NCBI RefSeq assembly: GCF_030127125.1 | Contig: NZ_CP126156.1 | Span: 1,984,001-2,048,000, forward strand | DNA: 64,000 nt | Origin: Halobaculum litoreum | GTDB taxonomy: Archaea; Halobacteriota; Halobacteria; Halobacteriales; Haloferacaceae | Reading direction: 5' to 3' | Shown: piece after piece, positions 47,122 through 55,660 of the stretch | How positions within the stretch are numbered: position 1 is the stretch's first letter | How the letters are laid out: each line of letters begins with the position of its first letter | Position numbers and translations under genes: made by a program | Notes under the pieces: generated by a model | Told to the model about the DNA's origin: nothing | The model's database searches: none | Seen by the model: only the letters and a program-made list of their open reading frames with translations

Positions 47122-47946
47122 CTACCCGCCGAGGTACAGCCGCGACACCTCGGGGTTGTCGAGCAGGCCGTCGGCGTCGTCGGCGTACGCGACGCTCCCC
47201 TGGTCGAGCACGTAGCCCGTGTCGGAGATGGCCAGTCCCTTGCGGGCGTTCTGCTCGACCATCAGGATCGCCGTCCCGAGGTCGTTCACCGCCTGCACGT
47301 CGGCGAACACCTCGTCGGCGGTGTTGGGCGCGAGCCCGGCCGACGGCTCGTCGATGAGCAGCACGTCCGGCTCCATCACGAGCGCCCGGGCGAACGCCAG
47401 CACCTGCCGCTGGCCGCCCGAGAGGGTGCGCGCCTTCGCCGCGCGCTTCTCCTCGAGGATCGGGAAGCGGTCGTACAGCTGTTCGATCACCGGTTCGAGG
47501 TCGTCGTCGCGGGCGACGCCGCCCATCCGGAGGTTCTCCTCGATGGTGAGGCTCGCGAACACGTTGTCCGTCTGCGGGACGTAGCCGATCCCGATGCGGA
47601 CGATGTCCTCGGGCGCCATCCCGCCGATGTCGTCGCCGCGGTAGCGGACGTGGCCCTCCCACGGCGTGAGCAGGCCGAACACCGTCTTCAGGACGGTCGA
47701 CTTGCCGGCGCCGTTGGGGCCGACGAGACACGCGATCTCCTCTTGCTCGAGGGTCAACGACAGGTCGTCGAGCACCTGCACGTCGCCGTAGCCGCTGTCG
47801 ACGCCCTCGACCGAGAGGACGGGGTCCGCGGCCGTCTCCGCGGGCGACGCCTCCGCGACGCCGCCGTCCGGGAGCGCTCGCCGGTCGCCGCGCGCCCCGC
47901 CCGCGCGTCCGAGCCGGGCGCCCCGTCCGCGACCCGCGTCGCTCAT
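47122..47946 (-). CDS. livF: Branched-chain amino acid ABC transporter ATP-binding protein LivF
   Basis: A 274-residue ABC ATPase: Walker A GPNGAGKS, signature LSGGQRQ, Walker B VLLIDEP and a final MVEQNA segment typical of LivF. About 45 extra Arg/Gly/Asp residues precede the domain, unusual for LivF; a later start cannot be excluded. It is the last gene of the livJHMGF operon, overlapping livG by four bases. Confidence 0.93.
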   Translation of the reverse strand: MSDAGRGRGARLGRAGGARGDRRALPDGGVAEASPAETAADPVLSVEGVDSGYGDVQVLDDLSLTLEQEEIACLVGPNGAGKSTVLKTVFGLLTPWEGHVRYRGDDIGGMAPEDIVRIGIGYVPQTDNVFASLTIEENLRMGGVARDDDLEPVIEQLYDRFPILEEKRAAKARTLSGGQRQVLAFARALVMEPDVLLIDEPSAGLAPNTADEVFADVQAVNDLGTAILMVEQNARKGLAISDTGYVLDQGSVAYADDADGLLDNPEVSRLYLGG

Positions 47947-48818
47947 TCGCCACCCCCGAGGTACGCGTCGATGACGCGGTCGTCCGCGCGCACGGCGTCG
48001 GGCGTCCCCTCGACGAGGACGCTGCCGCGGTCGAGGACGACGATCGGGTCGGCGAGGTTCATGATGAACTCCATGTCGTGTTCGATGATCAGGAAGGTGA
48101 CGCCCTGCTCGTTGAGCCGGGCGATCTGGTCGCGCAGTTTGTTCGCCAGCGTCGGGTTCACCCCGGCGACCGGCTCGTCGAGCAGCAGCACCTCCGGCTC
48201 GGCGAGCATCGCCCGCGCCAACTCGACGAGCTTCATCTGCCCGCCCGAGAGGTCGGTCGCCGCCTGCGTCGCGAGGTGACCGATCTCGAACTCCTCGAGG
48301 ATGCGCTGGGCGTCCTCGAGGTTGGCGCGCTCCTCCTCGCGCACGGTGTCGCCCGCGGTCAACAGCGACAGGAACGACTCGCCCGTCTGGCTTTGCGGCC
48401 CGACGAGCATCGCCTCGCGGACGGTCATCCCCTCCAGTTTGCGCGGCGTCTGGAACGTCCGGATCAGGCCGTGCTCGGCGATCCGGTGGGGCGTGGCGTC
48501 GGTCACGTCGGCGCCGTTGACGGTGACGGTGCCGGCGTCCTCCTCGTAGAACCCCGAGATGAGGTTGAACAGGGTGGACTTGCCGGCGCCGTTCGGGCCG
48601 ATGAGCCCGGTGACCGTGCCGCGCTCGACCTGGAAGGAGGCGTCGTCGGTGGCGACGAGGCCGCCGAACGTCTTCACGAGGCCGTCGACCTCGAGGACGA
48701 CGTCCTCCTTGTCGAGGTTGGCGCCCTCGTACACGGAGCCGGTCGACTCGGCGTCCGCGTCGGGCGCGGCGCCGTCGGCCGCCGGGTCCGGGTCGCCGGC
48801 GGACTCGGTGTCGCTCAC
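47943..48818 (-). CDS. livG: Branched-chain amino acid ABC transporter ATP-binding protein LivG
   Basis: A 291-residue ABC ATPase with Walker A GPNGAGKS, the Q-loop region LIRTFQTPRKL, signature LSGGQMK, Walker B LLLDEPVAGVNP and the LivG-type C-terminus (EHDMEFIMNLADPIVVLDRG, VIDAYLGGG). An acidic N-terminal extension (about 1-35) precedes the domain. GTG start overlapping the livM stop by four bases. It pairs with LivF to power the permease. Confidence 0.94.
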   Translation of the reverse strand: MSDTESAGDPDPAADGAAPDADAESTGSVYEGANLDKEDVVLEVDGLVKTFGGLVATDDASFQVERGTVTGLIGPNGAGKSTLFNLISGFYEEDAGTVTVNGADVTDATPHRIAEHGLIRTFQTPRKLEGMTVREAMLVGPQSQTGESFLSLLTAGDTVREEERANLEDAQRILEEFEIGHLATQAATDLSGGQMKLVELARAMLAEPEVLLLDEPVAGVNPTLANKLRDQIARLNEQGVTFLIIEHDMEFIMNLADPIVVLDRGSVLVEGTPDAVRADDRVIDAYLGGGE

Positions 48819-50023
48819 GACTGCTCACCCCCGTCGGTCGCGTGCGGGCGCTGTGTCTCCCCGGGACCGGGGACGTCGGCGTCGTCGAGCGCCGACGGCC
48901 AGATCAGTTCGCGCTGGGGCGGCAACACGCCCTCCGGCCGGAAGCGCATCACGAGGATGATGAGCACCCCGACCGCCAGCAGGCGCAGCGGCCCGATGTC
49001 GAACGCGATGAACTCGATCCCGTTGAGGAACCGGGTCCCCTCGCGGATCGCGATGACGACGAAGCCGCCGAACATCGCGCCGCGGTTCGAGCCGCTCCCG
49101 CCGAGGATCACCGCGATCCACACGTAGAACGTGTTGATCGGCTCGAAGTCGCCCGGGCTCACGAACAGGTTCAGGTGCGCGTAGAACACGCCCGCCAGCG
49201 CCATGATGACGCTGCCGAGCACGAACGACTGCATCTTGAACGCGTACGTGTTCTTCCCCAGCGCCTCCGCCAGGTCCTCGTCGCCGCGGATCGTCCGCAG
49301 CACCCGCCCCCACGGCGAGCGGTGGACCCGCCGCAACAGGAGGAAGGTGATCGCGACGAACACGAACACCAGCCCGACGTTGAGCAGCGCCTGGTAGAAC
49401 GGCTGTTGCAGCACGATCGGGCTCCCCGGAACGATCTCGATCCGGAGCCCCGGCATCGCCTGCGGGAACGTCGACAGCACGGGCCACCCCTCGAAGAAGC
49501 CGGGGATGCCGCGCAGGCCGGCGCTCCCGTTGGTGTACTCGCGCTCGTTGAGCACGATCAGGCGGACGACCTCCGCCAGCCCCAGCGAGGCGATGGCGAG
49601 GTAGTCGGCCCGCAGGCGCAGCGTCGGGATCCCGATGATCACCGCCAACACCGCGGCCAGCAGCAGGCCGACGAACAGCCCGAGCACCGGCGAGATCCCC
49701 CCGGCGATCGGGGAGTTGTCGGCCGTCAGAATCGCGGTGCCGTACGCGCCGAGGCCGAAGAACGCCGCGACGGAGAAGTTGATCAGTCCGGTGTACCCCC
49801 ACTGGGCGTTCAGCCCGAACGACAGCAGGACGTACATCCCGACGAGCCCGATGAGGTACATGAAGTACGTCGGGCCGAGCCCGCCGGTGACGAGGCCGAG
49901 CGCGAGCAGCGCGAGCAGCCCCGCGACGAACACGAGGACGCCCTGCTCGGTCGGCGTGAGGTCGCCGAAGCGGCCGGCGCTGGCGGCGTCCGCGTCCGCG
50001 TCGGGCCCCGGCGACTCGCTCAT
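48815..50023 (-). CDS. livM: Branched-chain amino acid ABC transporter permease LivM
   Basis: A 402-residue permease with about ten helices. LivM hallmarks are GLNAQWGYTGLINFSVAAFFGLGAY, RLRADYLAIASLGLAEV and the EAA-like loop IRGDEDLAEALGKNTYAFKM, ending in an acidic, soluble tail. Together with LivH it forms the membrane channel. Overlaps livH and livG by four bases at each end. Confidence 0.94.
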   Translation of the reverse strand: MSESPGPDADADAASAGRFGDLTPTEQGVLVFVAGLLALLALGLVTGGLGPTYFMYLIGLVGMYVLLSFGLNAQWGYTGLINFSVAAFFGLGAYGTAILTADNSPIAGGISPVLGLFVGLLLAAVLAVIIGIPTLRLRADYLAIASLGLAEVVRLIVLNEREYTNGSAGLRGIPGFFEGWPVLSTFPQAMPGLRIEIVPGSPIVLQQPFYQALLNVGLVFVFVAITFLLLRRVHRSPWGRVLRTIRGDEDLAEALGKNTYAFKMQSFVLGSVIMALAGVFYAHLNLFVSPGDFEPINTFYVWIAVILGGSGSNRGAMFGGFVVIAIREGTRFLNGIEFIAFDIGPLRLLAVGVLIILVMRFRPEGVLPPQRELIWPSALDDADVPGPGETQRPHATDGGEQS

Positions 50024-50940
50024 GTCCCGGCCCCCTGGCCGCCGGCGATGCCGTTCGGCCGCACGAGCAGCACCGCGACCATGATCACGAACGCGATGGC
50101 GTTCGCGTACTCGATGCCGATGGGGATGCCCACGTCGGTCAGGATCGGGGTGAGCTGGTTGATCATCCCGATGAGGAAGCCGCCCAGCATCGCGCCGTAG
50201 ACGGAGCCGATGCCGCCGAGGATCACCGCGGCGAACACGACCAGCAGGATGTTGAACCCCATCCGCGGGGAGATCTGGTTGTACAGGCCGAGGAACACGC
50301 CCCCGGCGCCGGCCAGCCCCGCGCCGATGACCCACGTCCACAGGGTGATGCGGTCGACGCGGATGCCGCTCACCCGCGCGAGCGAGGGGTTGTCGGCGGT
50401 CGCGCGCATCTTCCGGCCGAGGTCGGTGTACTGCAACAGCGTGTGCAGGCCGGCGACGAGGATCGCCGCCGACACGATGATCGCCACGTCGTGCAGCGTC
50501 ATCCGGACGCCGAACGGGATCAGGAACTCGATCGGGCGCAGCACCTGGATGCCGAACTCGACGAAGTCGGAGCCGAACTGGAACTGGATGAGCGCGCGAT
50601 ACACGAACGCGACTCCGATGCTCGTGATGAGCATCCCGATGGAGTCGACGTCCATGGCGTCGTAGAGGAACCGCTGGGTGATAACCGCCACGAGCGCCGC
50701 GACGGCGACGCCGACCGCCAGCGCGACGAAGAACCCGAGCGGGAGCCCGAGGAACCGCGCGCCGAGGCCGCCGACGAACCCGAAGGTGACCAGCGCCGAG
50801 TACGCCCCGACGGTCATCGTGTCGCCGTGGGCGAAGTTCGCGAAGTCGGCGATGCTGTACACGAGCGACAGGCCGATGCTCGCCAGTACGATGATGCTAC
50901 TGAACACCAGTCCGTTCGCCAAATATTCGAGGACGGACAT
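50020..50940 (-). CDS. livH: Branched-chain amino acid ABC transporter permease LivH
   Basis: A 306-residue permease with about eight helices: SIIVLASIGLSLVYSIADFANFAHGDTM at the N-terminus, RKMRATADNPSLARVSGI as the ATPase-contacting loop and GLYNQISPRMGFN, then ILGGIGSVYGAMLGGFLIG. These are LivH hallmarks. It starts 6 bp downstream of the livJ stop and overlaps livM by four bases. Confidence 0.94.
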   Translation of the reverse strand: MSVLEYLANGLVFSSIIVLASIGLSLVYSIADFANFAHGDTMTVGAYSALVTFGFVGGLGARFLGLPLGFFVALAVGVAVAALVAVITQRFLYDAMDVDSIGMLITSIGVAFVYRALIQFQFGSDFVEFGIQVLRPIEFLIPFGVRMTLHDVAIIVSAAILVAGLHTLLQYTDLGRKMRATADNPSLARVSGIRVDRITLWTWVIGAGLAGAGGVFLGLYNQISPRMGFNILLVVFAAVILGGIGSVYGAMLGGFLIGMINQLTPILTDVGIPIGIEYANAIAFVIMVAVLLVRPNGIAGGQGAGT

Positions 50941-50946
50941 CCTCGC

Positions 50947-52269
50947 TTAGCCTTCGATCGTGCCCGTCTGGGTGTACTCGTGGTTCTCGACCGTCAGGAT
51001 CTGCAGGAACCCGACCGGGTCGCCGTTCTCGTCGAAGTCGATGGGACCCGACACGCCCTGGTAGTCGATGTCCGAGGGCGTGCCGTCGTCGCCGAGCACG
51101 TCCATCGCCTCGGCGAAGGTGAACACCTCCTCGCCCTCGGGACGGGTCACGTCGCGGACGGTCTCCTGCAGCGCCGCCCCGGTGAACTCGTCGGCCGTCG
51201 CGATCGACAGCGCCGCCGTGATCACGCAGTCGTACGCGAACGCCGACCACGAGGTGGGCGCCTCGCCGTACTCGCTCTCGAACTCGCTGGCGAAGTTCTG
51301 GTAGTTCTCCTGGTCGATGGCGGCCGACGGCGTCACGATCTTCATGCCGTCGAGGCTCCCCTCGGGCGTGTTGCCGAGGACGTCCGGCCCGGCGACGGAG
51401 TCGGCGCCGTAGAACTGCGCCTCGTACCCGTTGGAGTACGCCTCCTGGGCCATCGTCGTGAACTCGGGCTGGTAGGTGATGAACAGCCACGCGTCGGCGC
51501 CGGAGTTGGCCATCCCGGAGACGGTCGAGGAGTACGACGACTGCCCCTGGTCGTGGGGCTGGTCGTACGCGATCTCGCCGTCGAACGCCTCGCGGAACGT
51601 CTCGGCGAGCCCCTGCCCGTAGTCGTTGTTCACCCACGCCAGCGCGACGGAGTCGTAGCCGTCCTCGCCGATGATGTTCGCCAGCGCCGTCGACTGGGTC
51701 GACCCGGTCGGCGACATCCGGAGCAGCCCGGGGAAGTTCGTGAGGTCCGGGCTGGTGGAGTTCTGGCTCAACTGGACCACGTCGGTGCCCTGGATGACCG
51801 ACTGGTAGATAGCCAGCGAGACGCCCGACCCCACCGCGCCGATGAGGAACGGGACGCCGTCCTGGTTCACCAGCTTCTGGGCCGCCGAGACGCCCGCCTG
51901 CGACTCGGACTGGGAGTCCTCGACGATGATCTCCATGTCGCGCCCGCCGATGCCGACGTCGTTGACGGCCGCCAGCGCGAGGTCCTTCCCGCGTTCGTTG
52001 CGCTGCCCGAACGCCGACAGCGAGCCGGTGAGGGAGTTCACCATCCCGATGGTGTACGGTCCGGAGTCGCCCCCGTCGCCCCCGGAGTCGCCCCCGTCGC
52101 TGTCCGAGCCGCCGCCGCCGTCGCCGGAGGCTTCGGTGTCGGTCTCTGTCGCTTCGTTGTCGGTCGTGCTCACACAGCCGGCGAGACCCGCGAGCCCTCC
52201 GAGGCCCGCGAGTCCCGACGCCCGCAGGACGTCGCGCCGGTTCGGTCCGGTCTCGTCATTCGGTACCAT
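50947..52269 (-). CDS. livJ: Branched-chain amino acid ABC transporter substrate-binding lipoprotein (LivJ/K type)
   Basis: A 440-residue type I periplasmic-binding protein with a Tat lipoprotein signal: twin Arg at 11-12 (NRRDVLRASG) and lipobox LAGC with C32, followed by a Thr/Glu/Ser/Gly/Asp-rich linker to about 70. The mature domain has YTIGMVNSLTGSLSAFGQ, IGAVGSGVSLAIYQ and ITYQPEFTTMAQE, the Leu/Ile/Val-binding layout. The ligand is uncertain: branched-chain amino acids by family, possibly other amino acids. First gene of livJHMGF; a 14-bp palindrome lies upstream of its promoter. Confidence 0.93.
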   Translation of the reverse strand: MVPNDETGPNRRDVLRASGLAGLGGLAGLAGCVSTTDNEATETDTEASGDGGGGSDSDGGDSGGDGGDSGPYTIGMVNSLTGSLSAFGQRNERGKDLALAAVNDVGIGGRDMEIIVEDSQSESQAGVSAAQKLVNQDGVPFLIGAVGSGVSLAIYQSVIQGTDVVQLSQNSTSPDLTNFPGLLRMSPTGSTQSTALANIIGEDGYDSVALAWVNNDYGQGLAETFREAFDGEIAYDQPHDQGQSSYSSTVSGMANSGADAWLFITYQPEFTTMAQEAYSNGYEAQFYGADSVAGPDVLGNTPEGSLDGMKIVTPSAAIDQENYQNFASEFESEYGEAPTSWSAFAYDCVITAALSIATADEFTGAALQETVRDVTRPEGEEVFTFAEAMDVLGDDGTPSDIDYQGVSGPIDFDENGDPVGFLQILTVENHEYTQTGTIEG

Positions 52270-52294: not shown

Positions 52295-52309
52295 CCTTAG
52301 CCCTATACC
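52295..52309 (-). promoter_or_regulatory. TATA region of the liv operon
   Basis: CCTTAGCCCTATACC holds two overlapping TATA candidates (coding strand GGTATAGG and GCTAAGG) 26-40 bp before the livJ start at 52269. Confidence 0.4.
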
Positions 52310-52314
52310 CCGCC

Positions 52315-52328
52315 CCGACCATGGTCGG
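52315..52328. promoter_or_regulatory. 14-bp perfect palindrome CCGACCATGGTCGG, copy 1 (livJ/proline dehydrogenase intergenic)
   Basis: A perfect palindrome just upstream of the livJ TATA region. The same 14 bases recur at 54064-54077 and with one mismatch at 54089-54102. Placement beside promoters of metabolically related genes suggests an operator for a dimeric activator or repressor. Confidence 0.6.
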
Positions 52329-52463
52329 AATCGGCGGTCGATCGCCGATCCGCGCCCCGATCGTCGCACCGTTCGGGGCGCCGGCGGACATTCGTTCAGC
52401 GAACGCCGGATGAAACGTTTGGTCGGGTGGCGACTTAGGGGGGATCGATCCGGATCGCACGGT

Positions 52464-53291
52464 ATGATCCCGCCGATCGCGAACAACTTCGTCGCCGGGG
52501 AGGACTCCGACACGGCGCTCGCGCACGTCGAGGAGCTGAACCGGCAGGGGATAGGCGCCATCCTCAACCTCCTCGGCGAGCACTACGAGGAGCGCGCCGG
52601 CGCCGACGCCGACGCCGACGCGTACGTCGAGTTGGTCGAGGAGCTCGCGGGGCGCGACCTCGACGCCTGCGTCTCCGTGAAGCCGTCACAGATCGGGCTG
52701 GACGTCTCCGCGGCGGTGTTCGAGGAGAACCTCGCCCGGATCGTCGACGCCGCCGACTGCTTCGTGTGGATCGACATGGAGGACCACGAGACGACCGACG
52801 TGACGCTCGACGCCTACGAGCGCCACGCCGTCGAGACCGACGGCCGGGTGGGGCTGTGCACGCAGGCGAACCTGAAGCGCACGCCCGACGACCTCGAACG
52901 GCTCGCCCCGCTCCCGGGGAAGGTCCGGCTGGTGAAGGGCGCCTACGACGAGCCGAAGGCGATCGCCCACAAGCAGAAGGCCCGCGTCGACGAGGCGTAC
53001 CGCGACTGTCTCCGCTACATGTTCGAGGCGTTCGAGGGCGGCGTCGCCGTCGGGAGCCACGACCCGGCGATGATCGACCTCGCGGCCGACCTCCACGCCG
53101 AACACGGCACCGACTACGAGGTGCAGATGCTCATGGGCGTGCGCGAGGACGCGCAGGCGGAGCTGGCGGCGTCGGGCGTCGAGGTGAACCAGTACATCCC
53201 GTACGGCTCGAAGTGGTTCCAGTACTTCTACCGTCGCGTGCGCGAGCGCAAGGAGAACGCGCTGTTCGCGCTGCGGGCGGTGTTGAGCTAA
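52464..53291 (+). CDS. Proline dehydrogenase
   Basis: A 275-residue monofunctional FAD-dependent proline dehydrogenase (PutA-barrel type) oxidising proline to pyrroline-5-carboxylate. FAD/substrate motifs include DMEDHE near 104-109, LCTQANLKRT, LVKGAYDEP (156-164) and the C-terminal YIPYGSKWFQYFYRRVRER with the proline-carboxylate-binding arginines. The ATG at 52464 has a TATA-like ACTTAGGG 25-32 bp upstream (52432-52439). A dehydrogenase for the next step and a regulator follow. Confidence 0.93.
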   Translation: MIPPIANNFVAGEDSDTALAHVEELNRQGIGAILNLLGEHYEERAGADADADAYVELVEELAGRDLDACVSVKPSQIGLDVSAAVFEENLARIVDAADCFVWIDMEDHETTDVTLDAYERHAVETDGRVGLCTQANLKRTPDDLERLAPLPGKVRLVKGAYDEPKAIAHKQKARVDEAYRDCLRYMFEAFEGGVAVGSHDPAMIDLAADLHAEHGTDYEVQMLMGVREDAQAELAASGVEVNQYIPYGSKWFQYFYRRVRERKENALFALRAVLS

Positions 53292-53297
53292 ACGCGG

Positions 53298-54011
53298 CTA
53301 CGGGTCGAGCAGCTTCGACTCGGCCTTGCGCAGGTGCTCCAGCAGCGTCGTCTTCGAGATGTCGACCCGGTCGGCCAACTCGCGGGTCGAACAGCCGCGG
53401 GGCCACTCGTAGTACCCCGCCGCGCGCGCCTCCTCGAACACCTCGCGCTGGGTGGGAGTGAGCGTGTCGAGGCGCTGGTCGCGCTCGGAGCGGGCCGCCG
53501 AGCCGTCCGCGGCGGTGATCGAGACGACCGACACCTCCGCGCCGGCGTCGGCGCGGACGCCGTCGAGCGCCGCCTCGATCTCCGGGCGCTCGCCGGTGAA
53601 ACACAGCTGCCACTCCTCGCGGCCGCCCTCGATCCGGACGGGGGCGCTGTGGACGAAGCCGTGGCGCAGCAGCGTCGGGCACACCATGTCGTCGGGGTCG
53701 TACTCGAGGAAGAACTCCCGGACGACGTTGCCCGGCGCGTCGCGCGCGCGGCCGAACCGCTCCTGCAGTTCCAGCACCTCCCCCGCGTGGTCGGACGCGC
53801 GGATCTCGTCGAGCAGCTCCTCGACCTCCGCGGTCGTCTCGCCGAACGCCGTGAACAGGCCGTTGACCGACTCCGGGGCGGCCCGCGGCGTGTCGTAGAT
53901 GGCGTGAGCCAACACCCCGCCGCCCGTTCGCTCGGTCGCCTCGATCGCCCAACAGTTCGGATGCCACAGATCGAGCGTCAACCGGGTTCCGGCGTTCAGG
54001 ACTTGACTCAT
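53298..54011 (-). CDS. HTH_10 (bacterio-opsin activator-type) transcriptional regulator
   Basis: A 237-residue regulator. An N-terminal sensory domain (1-175, with WHPNCWAIEATERT and a ligand-type core) is followed by the HTH_10 DNA-binding domain (about 180-235): LTPTQREVFEEARAAGYYEWPR, STRELADRVDISKTTLLEHLRKAE. Located between proline dehydrogenase and a P5C-dehydrogenase-type gene, it is the likely regulator of proline catabolism (inference). The ATG at 54011 has CTATATAT (54034-54041) at the right distance, and a 14-bp palindrome lies 23 bp further upstream. Confidence 0.9.
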   Translation of the reverse strand: MSQVLNAGTRLTLDLWHPNCWAIEATERTGGGVLAHAIYDTPRAAPESVNGLFTAFGETTAEVEELLDEIRASDHAGEVLELQERFGRARDAPGNVVREFFLEYDPDDMVCPTLLRHGFVHSAPVRIEGGREEWQLCFTGERPEIEAALDGVRADAGAEVSVVSITAADGSAARSERDQRLDTLTPTQREVFEEARAAGYYEWPRGCSTRELADRVDISKTTLLEHLRKAESKLLDP

Positions 54012-54033
54012 CGTGTGTATAGTCCGTCCGGAA

Positions 54034-54041
54034 CTATATAT
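54034..54041 (-). promoter_or_regulatory. TATA box of the HTH_10 regulator
   Basis: CTATATAT (coding strand ATATATAG), 23-30 bp before the ATG at 54011. Confidence 0.55.
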
Positions 54042-54063
54042 GCGAATAGGTACCAGTAGCCGG

Positions 54064-54077
54064 CCGACCATGGTCGG
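54064..54077. promoter_or_regulatory. 14-bp palindrome CCGACCATGGTCGG, copy 2
   Basis: Identical to the copy at 52315-52328. It lies upstream of the TATA box of the HTH_10 gene in the divergent regulator/aldehyde dehydrogenase intergenic region. Confidence 0.6.
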
Positions 54078-54088
54078 GTGGGCGTCGA

Positions 54089-54102
54089 CCGACCATGGAC
54101 GG
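54089..54102. promoter_or_regulatory. Near-copy of the palindrome (CCGACCATGGACGG), copy 3
   Basis: Matches the 14-bp palindrome at 13 positions; 25 bp centre-to-centre from copy 2, about two and a half helical turns. It lies just upstream of the TATA-like AGTTACCC (54109-54116) of the aldehyde dehydrogenase gene. Confidence 0.5.
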
Positions 54103-54139
54103 TTCGGGAGTTACCCTCCGAGGTGACGGACACCGACCC

Positions 54140-55660
54140 ATGTCGGATGCGTATCAGCACTACATCGACGGCGAGTGGACCGACGGGACGGGCGACGAGA
54201 CGTTCGTCTCGGAGAACCCGGCCGACGGCGACGAACTGGGCGAGTTCCGCCGCGGCACCGAGGCCGACGTCGACCGCGCGGTCGCCGCCGCCGACGACGC
54301 CTTCGAAGAGTGGAAGCAGCTCTCGCACATCGACCGCGCGGAGTACCTCTGGGACATCTACCACGAGCTGAAAGAGCGTCACCAAGAGTTGGGAGAGATC
54401 GTCACGATGGAGTGCGGCAAGGAGATCTCCGAAGGCAAAGCCGACGTGACGGAGGCGTGGCACATGGTGGAGTGGGCCGCCGGCGACGCCCGCCACCCCA
54501 AGGGCGACGTGATCCCCTCCGAAATCCCCAGCAAGGACGCGTACATGCGGCGGAAACCGCGGGGTGTGGTGGGCTGCATCACGCCGTGGAACTTCCCGGT
54601 CGCCATCCCGTTTTGGCACATGGCCGTCGCGCTGGTGGAAGGAAACACGGTCGTGTTCAAGCCGGCCGAGCAGACGCCGTGGTGCGCGCAGATCCTCGCG
54701 GAGATGTTCGAGGACGCCGGCGTGCCCGACGGCGTGTTCAACATGGTCCAGGGCTTCGGCGACGCCGGTAACGCCATCGTCGAGGACGACCGCGTCGACA
54801 CCGTCCTGTTCACCGGTAGCGCGGAGGTCGGCCACAAGATCGCCAGCAAGGTCGGCGGCGAGCCGGGCAAACTCGTCGCGGCCGAGATGGGCGGCAAGAA
54901 CAACATCGTCGTGACCGAGAAGGCGGATCTGGACACGGCCGTCCACTCCGCGACGATGTCCTCGTTCAAGACGACCGGCCAGCGATGTGTGTCGAGCGAG
55001 CGCATCGTCGTCCACGAGGACGTGTACGACGAGTTCAAGGAGCGGTTCGTCGCGAACGCCGAGAACGTCGCCGTGGGCGACCCGCTCGACGAGAACACGT
55101 TCATGGGCCCGCTCATCGAGGCCGAGCACAAGGAGAAGGTCTCGCAGTACAACCAACTCGCGAAAGACGAGGGCGTGAACGTGCTCGTCGACCGCGAGGA
55201 ACTGGACGACTCGGAGATCCCGGACGGCCACGAGGACGGCCACTGGGTGGGCCCGTTCGTGTACGAAGCCGACCCCAACGAGGACCTGCGCTGCACCCAC
55301 GAGGAGGTGTTCGGCCCGCACGTGGCGCTGTTGAAGTACAGCGGCGACATCGAGGACGCCGTCGAGATCCACAACGACACGGATTACGGCCTCGCGGGCG
55401 CGATCATCTCCGAGGACTACCGCCAGATCAACTACTTCCGCGACAACGCGGAAATCGGGCTGGCGTACGGGAACCTGCCCTGTATCGGCGCCGAAGTCCA
55501 CCTCCCGTTCGGCGGCGTCAAGAAGTCCGGCAACGGCTACCCCAGCGCCCGCGAGGTGATCGAGGCGGTGACCGAGCGGACGGCGTGGACCCTGAACAAC
55601 TCGAAGGACATCGAGATGGCACAGGGCCTCTCGGCCGACATCAAGACGAAGGAGGACTGA
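54140..55660 (+). CDS. NAD(P)-dependent aldehyde dehydrogenase, probable pyrroline-5-carboxylate dehydrogenase
   Basis: A 506-residue ALDH with TPWNFP (148-153, oxyanion N151), FKPAEQTP (K174), catalytic E249 in AAEMGGKN and nucleophile C283 in GQRCVSSER; the C-terminal PFGGVKKSGNG is also typical. It oxidises an aldehyde to an acid. Neighbouring proline dehydrogenase and the shared palindrome point to glutamate semialdehyde (P5C) as substrate; succinate semialdehyde or betaine aldehyde are alternatives by family. ATG 54140 begins at the family's usual N-terminus. Confidence 0.9.
   Translation: MSDAYQHYIDGEWTDGTGDETFVSENPADGDELGEFRRGTEADVDRAVAAADDAFEEWKQLSHIDRAEYLWDIYHELKERHQELGEIVTMECGKEISEGKADVTEAWHMVEWAAGDARHPKGDVIPSEIPSKDAYMRRKPRGVVGCITPWNFPVAIPFWHMAVALVEGNTVVFKPAEQTPWCAQILAEMFEDAGVPDGVFNMVQGFGDAGNAIVEDDRVDTVLFTGSAEVGHKIASKVGGEPGKLVAAEMGGKNNIVVTEKADLDTAVHSATMSSFKTTGQRCVSSERIVVHEDVYDEFKERFVANAENVAVGDPLDENTFMGPLIEAEHKEKVSQYNQLAKDEGVNVLVDREELDDSEIPDGHEDGHWVGPFVYEADPNEDLRCTHEEVFGPHVALLKYSGDIEDAVEIHNDTDYGLAGAIISEDYRQINYFRDNAEIGLAYGNLPCIGAEVHLPFGGVKKSGNGYPSAREVIEAVTERTAWTLNNSKDIEMAQGLSADIKTKED

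What the first reader, a model, noticed from the sequence alone, without database searches (positions are those of the whole stretch)
52315..54102. A repeated 14-bp palindrome links the liv transporter, proline dehydrogenase, an HTH activator and an aldehyde dehydrogenase
CCGACCATGGTCGG occurs exactly at 52315-52328 and 54064-54077 and with one mismatch at 54089-54102. All three lie in the two intergenic regions that separate livJ from proline dehydrogenase and the HTH_10 regulator from the aldehyde dehydrogenase. In each case the site lies roughly 15-30 bp upstream of a TATA-like element (livJ, HTH_10, ALDH), a position typical for activator sites. The simplest model is that the HTH_10 protein binds this dyad, controls itself and couples amino-acid import to proline degradation. 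An exact repeat of a 14-mer in two functionally related promoters is unlikely by chance.
Basis: partly seen in the sequence, partly recalled or inferred. Interest (0 to 1): 0.72.

Follow-up and report, generated by a model that had tools for sequence, protein, structure and literature searches.

The report
Conserved DNA switch for proline use

Summary
CCGACCATGGTCGG occurs exactly twice in the 3.04-Mb genome, both here; a one-mismatch copy lies alongside, and the two other one-mismatch sites are not promoter-like. The motif is conserved across haloarchaeal genera at fixed spacing: strict form at ALDH in 60 of 72 named loci (other 12: 11-13 of 14 letters), livJ 24 of 26, HTH 50 of 75, and nowhere else in 819 kb.

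Who binds: paralogous HTH_10 genes beside other targets (permease, PLP enzyme, probable transporter) show the same frame 36-42 bp before the target's ATG; rhodopsin promoters near Bat-like HTH_10 genes carry ACTAGT-centred versions. The HTH_10 gene is the common factor.

Best reading: a local Bat-type HTH_10 regulator, probably an activator, of amino-acid import and proline oxidation. Binding, sign and ligand are inferred. The kind is known; this regulator-operator pair was not found in the papers searched.

The parts
52315..52328 (.). full dyad CCGACCATGGTCGG at the livJ promoter, 45 bp from the livJ ATG and 7 bp from TATAGG on the - strand
   Evidence: in named loci 21 of 24 strict livJ sites lie 40-46 bp from the ATG
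52302..52307 (-). TATA-like element of livJ (TATAGG)
   Evidence: read from the sequence
52420..52426 (+). half-dyad TGGTCGG at the proline dehydrogenase promoter, 37 bp before the ATG (same spacing as the ALDH dyad)
   Evidence: 49 of 49 named in-cluster loci; 13 of 13 linked against 0 of 17 unlinked ProDH genes; also absent at this genome's second ProDH
52434..52439 (+). TATA-like element of ProDH (CTTAGG)
   Evidence: read from the sequence
54064..54077 (.). full dyad CCGACCATGGTCGG, 52 bp from the HTH ATG and 23 bp from its TATA
54035..54040 (-). TATA box of the HTH_10 gene (TATATA)
   Evidence: read from the sequence
54089..54102 (.). one-mismatch dyad CCGACCATGGACGG, 37 bp before the ALDH ATG
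   Evidence: 60 of 72 named loci strict, 44 of them with a site at 36-38 bp
54111..54115 (+). TATA-like element of ALDH (TTACC)
   Evidence: read from the sequence
53298..54011 (-). HTH_10 (Bat-type) regulator, 237 aa: two beta-alpha-beta-beta-alpha-beta-like N-terminal units plus C-terminal HTH
   Evidence: Pfam PF04967, 3.2e-20; AlphaFold model, mean pLDDT 87.3
52464..53291 (+). proline dehydrogenase (Pro_dh)
   Evidence: Pfam PF01619, 3.1e-30
54140..55660 (+). [quoted passage not shown]
   Evidence: Pfam PF00171, 2.9e-147; no NCBIfam model over its cut-off among the 25 of 44 shown
50947..52269 (-). livJ-type substrate-binding protein
   Evidence: Pfam PF13458, 3.4e-42
50020..50940 (-). livH-type permease
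   Evidence: Pfam PF02653, 3.8e-43
47943..48818 (-). livG-type ATPase
   Evidence: Pfam PF00005 and PF12399

Best explanation
The 14-bp dyad is the operator of the HTH_10 protein encoded between ProDH and ALDH. The protein binds, probably as a dimer, just upstream of the BRE/TATA of livJ (full dyad), ALDH (full dyad) and ProDH (promoter-proximal half-site), and in many lineages also upstream of its own gene. From there it most likely helps recruit TFB/TBP, as Bat is thought to do at the bop UAS. It switches on uptake through the liv-type transporter and proline oxidation (ProDH, then ALDH as presumed P5C dehydrogenase) when an amino-acid-related signal, perhaps proline or P5C, is sensed by the N-terminal domains. 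SHOWN here: the sites, their conservation, spacing and specificity, and that the dyad accompanies HTH_10 genes across different targets. INFERRED: direct binding, dimerisation, activation rather than repression, the ligand, proline as the transporter's substrate.
For: Genome-wide specificity. Conservation and spacing. Half-site in 13 of 13 linked against 0 of 17 unlinked ProDH promoters. In 60 genomes the strict motif occurs in 19 of 19 with an HTH ortholog of at least 61% identity (37 sites; reversed control 8) and in 6 of 41 others (8 sites; control 11). HTH_10 paralogs beside a permease, a PLP enzyme and a probable transporter: 7 of 16 adjacent promoters exact and 12 of 16 within one mismatch; dinucleotide-preserving shuffles 0.017 and 0.28. 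Scan of all 64 palindromic hexamers in a CC..GG frame: CCATGG in 17 of 19 cluster loci, ACTAGT in 5 of 30 rhodopsin loci, TCATGA in 4 of 13 paralog loci. Seven of the nine rhodopsin loci with ACTAGT at this place have a Bat-like gene just upstream, the dyad 39-42 bp from the ATG in those seven. H. volcanii ProDH (HVO_1191) and its neighbour aldH2 (HVO_1189) rise together on alanine versus ammonium (log2 2.9 and 2.1; PMC6801745).
Against: No binding or expression data for this regulator. Five named Haloarcula HTH orthologs (L101, L105-L108) have no dyad near them. Own-promoter sites are missing at the strict level within 120 bp in 25 of 75 loci (5 are near-variants of 11-13/14, 5 have a strict site farther upstream). 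livJ of L095 has no recognisable dyad. Seven Natrialbaceae loci have a changed core (CCATGA) and only between ProDH and ALDH. Of this genome's 20 other HTH_10 matches none shows a CATG-core dyad upstream; four have CC..GG near-palindromes with unrelated cores, untested for conservation, so self-regulation by such dyads is not a family rule. Permease paralogs L277, L284, L285 and L288 have 2-3 mismatches. Four of the nine ACTAGT sites lack part of the outer frame, and one Bat-like gene (L232) precedes a rhodopsin without ACTAGT. The strict pattern and the YCATGR pattern were set after looking at loci. Position alone does not prove activation.
Confidence: 0.74

Rival explanations
1. Same regulator and site, but the protein is a repressor released by its ligand: binding next to the BRE hinders TFB or polymerase until proline or a metabolite appears.
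For: Local, partly autoregulated catabolic regulators are often repressors (general knowledge). In many loci one dyad lies between two divergent promoters.
Against: The dyad edge lies 7-8 bp upstream of the TATA-like element (livJ, ALDH), beside rather than over the core promoter, the same geometry as the Bat/bop-type sites; Bat is described as an activator (abstract start and passages of PMC3184054 and PMC1447603).
Confidence: 0.13
2. Another haloarchaeal factor (for example an Lrp/AsnC-type regulator) binds the dyad, and the HTH_10 gene is a bystander of a conserved cluster.
For: Amino-acid metabolism is commonly under Lrp control; H. volcanii work proposed an Lrp-like factor for alanine-responsive genes (PMC6801745, passages).
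Against: The frame occurs next to HTH_10 paralogs whose adjacent targets differ and where the neighbouring binding protein is only distantly related (L022, L033). The core differs between HTH_10 subgroups with different recognition helices, with exceptions. The motif proposed in PMC6801745 is AT-rich (AAAGACTAART), and the table lines seen for HVO_1191 and HVO_1189 carry no mark for it.
Confidence: 0.1
3. Chance repeat, restriction-type palindrome (CCATGG) or start-codon artefact.
For: CCATGG contains ATG, and some matches in genomes without a close ortholog overlap start codons or coding sequence.
Against: Fixed promoter position in tens of species, 0 strict sites elsewhere in 818,762 bp of the named loci, shuffles near zero.
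Confidence: 0.01

Closest known systems
Bat (bacterio-opsin activator) and the bop upstream activator sequence, Halobacterium
   Same: HTH_10 regulator; 14-bp CC-nn-[hexamer]-nn-GG dyad (full frame in 5 of 30 rhodopsin loci, core ACTAGT in 9) about 38-42 bp before the ATG, just upstream of the TATA; several co-regulated genes including the regulator's own (PMC1885257 passage).
   Different: Core ACTAGT rather than CCATGG; the Bat-like protein of L226 hits Pfam BAT and Bat has GAF/PAS domains (papers), while this 237-aa protein hits none of these; targets are opsin and retinal genes, not proline use.
DmsR and NarO (HTH_10-type regulators of DMSO respiration and denitrification)
   Same: Bat-like regulators without PAS/GAF (PMC11218638 passage).
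   Different: Anaerobic respiration targets; their operators were not available here (NarO paper not held).
Haloferax volcanii HVO_1189/HVO_1191 (P5CDH and ProDH homologs)
   Same: Neighbouring ALDH and ProDH genes, co-induced on alanine (PMC6801745). The 10 named Haloferax loci have ALDH, HTH and ProDH together, 9 with livJ, with ALDH dyads in all 10.
   Different: No regulator was assigned to this pair in the parts I read ('signal ... unclear'). That the gene between them is this HTH_10 ortholog is inferred.
CsmR, Haloferax volcanii
   Same: Semi-palindromic motif directly upstream of BRE/TATA (PMC13286277 passages).
   Different: Different motif (TATCA-N4-TGATA), compared by its authors with Lrp/AsnC motifs; different targets (motility).

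Membership tests
HTH_10 (Pfam PF04967) transcription regulators | C-terminal HTH_10 domain over the gathering score | tested here: met
   72.1 bits against a cut-off of 23.1, residues 184-235
Bat proper | BAT domain (PF15915), GAF and PAS domains | tested here: not met
   none hit in the window protein at E 0.001; the Bat-like protein beside rhodopsin in L226 does hit PF15915. It works like Bat but is not Bat
Bat-type UAS | 14-bp dyad with outer CC..GG immediately upstream of the TATA | tested here: met
Bat-type UAS | core ACTAGT | tested here: not met
   core is CCATGG
Bat-type UAS | regulator binds the site and activates | not testable with these tools
   needs EMSA/ChIP and a deletion mutant
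Proline dehydrogenase | Pfam Pro_dh | tested here: met
   106.1 bits against 27; best NCBIfam model is below its cut-off (205.8 of 500)
P5C dehydrogenase | curated equivalog/subfamily score | tested here: not met
   P5CDH models match (TIGR01237 329 bits, NF002852 340 bits) but lie under their cut-offs; no model over its cut-off among the 25 of 44 shown. The role is inferred from gene context
HAAT (liv) amino-acid ABC transporter | substrate-binding protein, permease and ATPase of the family | tested here: met
   PF13458, PF02653, PF00005 plus PF12399; proline as substrate not tested

The most novel reading that the evidence does not exclude
HTH_10 proteins (21 matches in this genome) share one DNA-reading frame: a 14-bp CC-nn-[6-bp core]-nn-GG dyad adjacent to the BRE/TATA of a neighbouring gene, with the recognition helix setting the core: SKTT..LRK reads CCAT half-sites, SKATLLEH reads TCAT, AKST..LRR reads CCATGA, and Bat's RSTFHQHL reads ACTAGT. 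If so, targets of many uncharacterised HTH_10 regulators could be predicted from sequence, and half-sites at some promoters would set graded responses. Exceptions found on recheck (L298 SKATILEH and L038 SKATVLEH have CCAT) show that the helix rule is at best incomplete, so I lowered the probability from 0.45.
Probability: 0.4. Interest if true: 0.72.

Novelty: new member of a known kind. Interest (0 to 1): 0.56.

Why it matters
It gives a precise, testable operator for a regulator of amino-acid catabolism in haloarchaea and a likely explanation for the co-induction of ProDH and P5CDH homologs in H. volcanii whose signal the authors call unclear. It also suggests a common DNA-binding frame for a large, mostly uncharacterised archaeal regulator family, with a first guess at which helix residues bear on specificity.

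Tried and rejected
Other genome sites: C1:307644 and C1:1676845 rejected as operators (start codon; inside an ORF). Strict sites in genomes without a close ortholog, 6 of 41, examined: G015 inside an ORF; G027 at the start codon of an ORF; G035 two copies in a duplicated stretch, overlapping what I read as a start codon; G040 and G057 lie in an ALDH/ProDH setting, G057 with the 46%-identical HTH beside it, G040 with a 35%-identical HTH on another contig; G051 upstream of another HTH_10 gene. Of the 37 strict sites in the 19 genomes with an ortholog, one (G025:C1:2241015) is away from the cluster and lies inside an ORF. General self-regulation by HTH_10 proteins: not seen among the other matches of this genome; one locus gave no start, and for two the gene start lay beyond the locus. 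Sequence search of solved structures: no relative. Foldseek against PDB: one hit under 0.001, Thermoplasma Ta1207 5m86 (E 2.2e-4, TM 0.43 by query), too weak for a ligand clue.

Literature: the letters CCATGGTCGG occur in 36 papers, of which the 10 listed are not on haloarchaea; HVO_1190 in no held paper; no held paper with both ACTAGTTNG and bacteriorhodopsin. Searches that could have named this regulon; their listings show none, and I did not open most of the listed papers. Recalled, not read: the bop UAS consensus of Baliga and DasSarma 1999 and the NarO paper (not held; only reference entries seen).

Counts and dropped rows: an earlier count said 14/14 and 0/16 for the ProDH half-site; the recount is 13 of 13 and 0 of 17 (30 loci of the 60 rows). 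One search kept 80 of 94 loci. One search counted only loci whose tblastn match began within 10 residues of the query start: ALDH 72 of 72 present, HTH 75 of 80, livJ 26 of 46, ProDH 49 of 55. Of the 20 dropped livJ, two are cut by the locus end, L095 has no site and 17 have one of 11-14/14 within 260 bp upstream. One search used 16 of the 23 paralog loci: L283, L289, L290, L292 and L297 had no adjacent target defined, and L296 and L299 are ALDH/ProDH-type settings. One search used mononucleotide shuffles; dinucleotide-preserving ones.

Full report
1. Observation. In the whole 3.04-Mb genome the 14-mer occurs exactly only at these two places, and of the three one-mismatch sites one is here; the other two overlap a start codon or lie inside an ORF. 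The looser frame CCnnCCATGGnnGG occurs four times in the genome, three of them here; its reversed control also occurs four times. At three mismatches the window is not enriched, so the case rests on the near-exact copies and on conservation.

2. Anatomy. Genes, left to right: liv-type ATPase and permease genes and livJ on the - strand; ProDH (+); the HTH_10 regulator (-); ALDH (+). The dyads lie 7 bp (livJ), 8 bp (ALDH) and 23 bp (HTH) upstream of TATA-like elements (my count). ProDH has no full dyad, but TGGTCGG (52420-52426), the exact right half, ends 37 bp before its ATG, the same distance as the ALDH dyad.

3. Conservation. The search for related loci kept 80 named loci of 94. The gene neighbourhood varies but is widely kept. 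Strict sites (CC[GT][ACT]CCATGG[AGT][AC]GG, a pattern set after looking) in the 120 bp upstream: ALDH 60 of 72, the other 12 at 11-13 of 14 matches; livJ 24 of 26 (26 of 26 at 12 or more); HTH 50 of 75. The ProDH half-site is in 49 of 49. Mononucleotide shuffles gave means of 0.006 or less for the strict motif and 0.39 for the ProDH half-site. No strict site lay outside the 300 bp upstream of these genes in 818,762 bp. ALDH has a site at 36-38 bp in 44 loci. Paralog control: of 30 ProDH loci from this genome and relatives (30 of the 60 rows), 13 of 13 linked to the cluster have the half-site at 37-38 bp and 0 of 17 unlinked ones do; this genome's own second ProDH, fetched later, lacks it too.

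4. Presence with the regulator. In 60 genomes, all 19 with an HTH ortholog of at least 61% identity have the strict motif (37 sites; reversed control 8), against 6 of 41 others (8 sites; control 11). Of the 37 sites, one (in G025) is away from the cluster, inside an ORF. The six other genomes were looked at: three are coding, start-codon or duplicated chance matches by my reading, two are ALDH/ProDH settings with a diverged HTH in the genome, one lies upstream of another HTH_10 gene. In the window's genus, the five relatives without a close ortholog (G002, G007-G010) have none. Species are not independent, so these counts are descriptive. One search scored only part of the candidates in some genomes, so absence there is not certain.

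5. Which protein? The cluster is inherited together, so co-occurrence alone could be hitch-hiking. Three results separate regulator from cluster. (b) HTH_10 paralogs (48-67% identical to L038, itself 43% identical to the window protein) stand beside an amino-acid permease (AA_permease_2), a PLP enzyme (PALP) or a protein without Pfam match that I read as a transporter, with CCnnYCATGRnnGG 36-42 bp before the target ATG: 7 of 16 exact, 12 of 16 within one mismatch; dinucleotide-preserving shuffles 0.017 and 0.28, maxima 1 and 2. This pattern was set after looking. (c) A scan of all 64 palindromic hexamers in a CC..GG frame returned CCATGG for the cluster (17 of 19), ACTAGT for rhodopsin loci (5 of 30) and TCATGA for the permease paralogs (4 of 13). 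ACTAGT stands about 40 bp before the ATG in nine rhodopsin loci; four of these lack part of the outer frame. In seven of the nine a Bat-like gene lies just upstream (tblastn; Pfam-checked for L226 only); L229 and L233 show none within 1.5 kb, and L232 has a Bat-like gene but no ACTAGT. A tree of 44 HTH proteins sets the permease, YkvI-like and PALP groups apart with support, while the cluster-type proteins need five changes of label; the name YkvI-like is my recollection.

6. Specificity residues. Cluster proteins read SKTTLLEHLRKAE in most loci; seven Natrialbaceae read AKSTLLEHLRRAE with CCATGA(T) between ProDH and ALDH, while SKST..LRK proteins (L033, L069, L112) keep CCATGG at a neighbouring gene. 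Of the paralogs, SKATLLEH goes with TCAT in L278-L282, L284, L286 and L288 (L277 and L285 have no clear site), but SKATVLEH (L038) and SKATILEH (L298) go with CCAT; SKTTFLEH (L294, L295) goes with CCAT. Bat-like proteins read RSTFHQHL (RSTYHQHL in L218) with ACTAGT. The correlation is confounded by descent and has these exceptions.

7. Mechanism. The sites adjoin the BRE/TATA rather than cover it, at the spacing of the Bat/bop-type sites, which favours activation. The AlphaFold model (mean pLDDT 87.3, 39 sequences) shows two beta-alpha-beta-beta-alpha-beta-like units and the HTH, compatible with a small-molecule sensor; Foldseek found one weak match. In H. volcanii the ProDH and ALDH homologs HVO_1191 and HVO_1189 rise on alanine versus ammonium; the authors call the signal unclear and suggest ammonium limitation (PMC6801745, passages and section 7). 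A dyad-reading regulator between them would be one explanation.

8. Against. Five Haloarcula orthologs lack the dyad; own-promoter sites are missing within 120 bp in a third of loci (25 of 75; five have one farther upstream); none of the other HTH_10 matches in this genome that could be examined shows a CATG-core dyad upstream, though four have CC..GG near-palindromes with other cores; four permease paralogs have weak sites; no binding or expression data exist here for this protein.

9. Known or new. HTH_10 activators with an upstream activator sequence are known (Bat; passages; the UAS letters are recalled, and the CC..ACTAGT..GG form was checked here). The listings of my searches show no paper on this regulator, its operator or the common frame; the library lacks most subscription journals, so it may be in print elsewhere.

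Noticed in passing
   Followed up: partly
window 52393-52405 and ProDH upstream regions: A TTATTTCA-like stretch lies about 65-90 bp before the ProDH ATG in 16 of 49 named loci within one mismatch (10 exact); in the window this region holds a short inverted repeat CGTTCAGCGAACG. Unexplained, no chance level computed.
   Followed up: partly
G000:C1:1557482-1558309 (L300) and unlinked ProDH loci among L163-L184: Several of these genomes carry a second ProDH (66% identical here) outside the cluster; 17 of 17 examined, and the one of this genome, lack the half-site.
   Followed up: yes
L073, L080, L085, L087, L094, L096, L097: Natrialbaceae have ProDH and ALDH divergently arranged with the altered core CCATGA between them and no site at the HTH gene itself.
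   Followed up: partly
L101, L105-L108; L203: Haloarcula HTH orthologs stand without a dyad; one of these genomes (G054) also has a 49%-identical HTH in an ALDH/ProDH/livJ cluster with a dyad at livJ, so the role may have been handed over.
   Followed up: partly
L202 (G051:C8:81564): A CCTTCCATGGTAGG dyad sits closely upstream of another, distant HTH_10 gene.
   Followed up: no
L196 (G040:C12:347): A CCTTCCATGGTCGG dyad lies about 440 bp before a gene that looks IclR-type (my reading, not scanned); target unclear.
   Followed up: no
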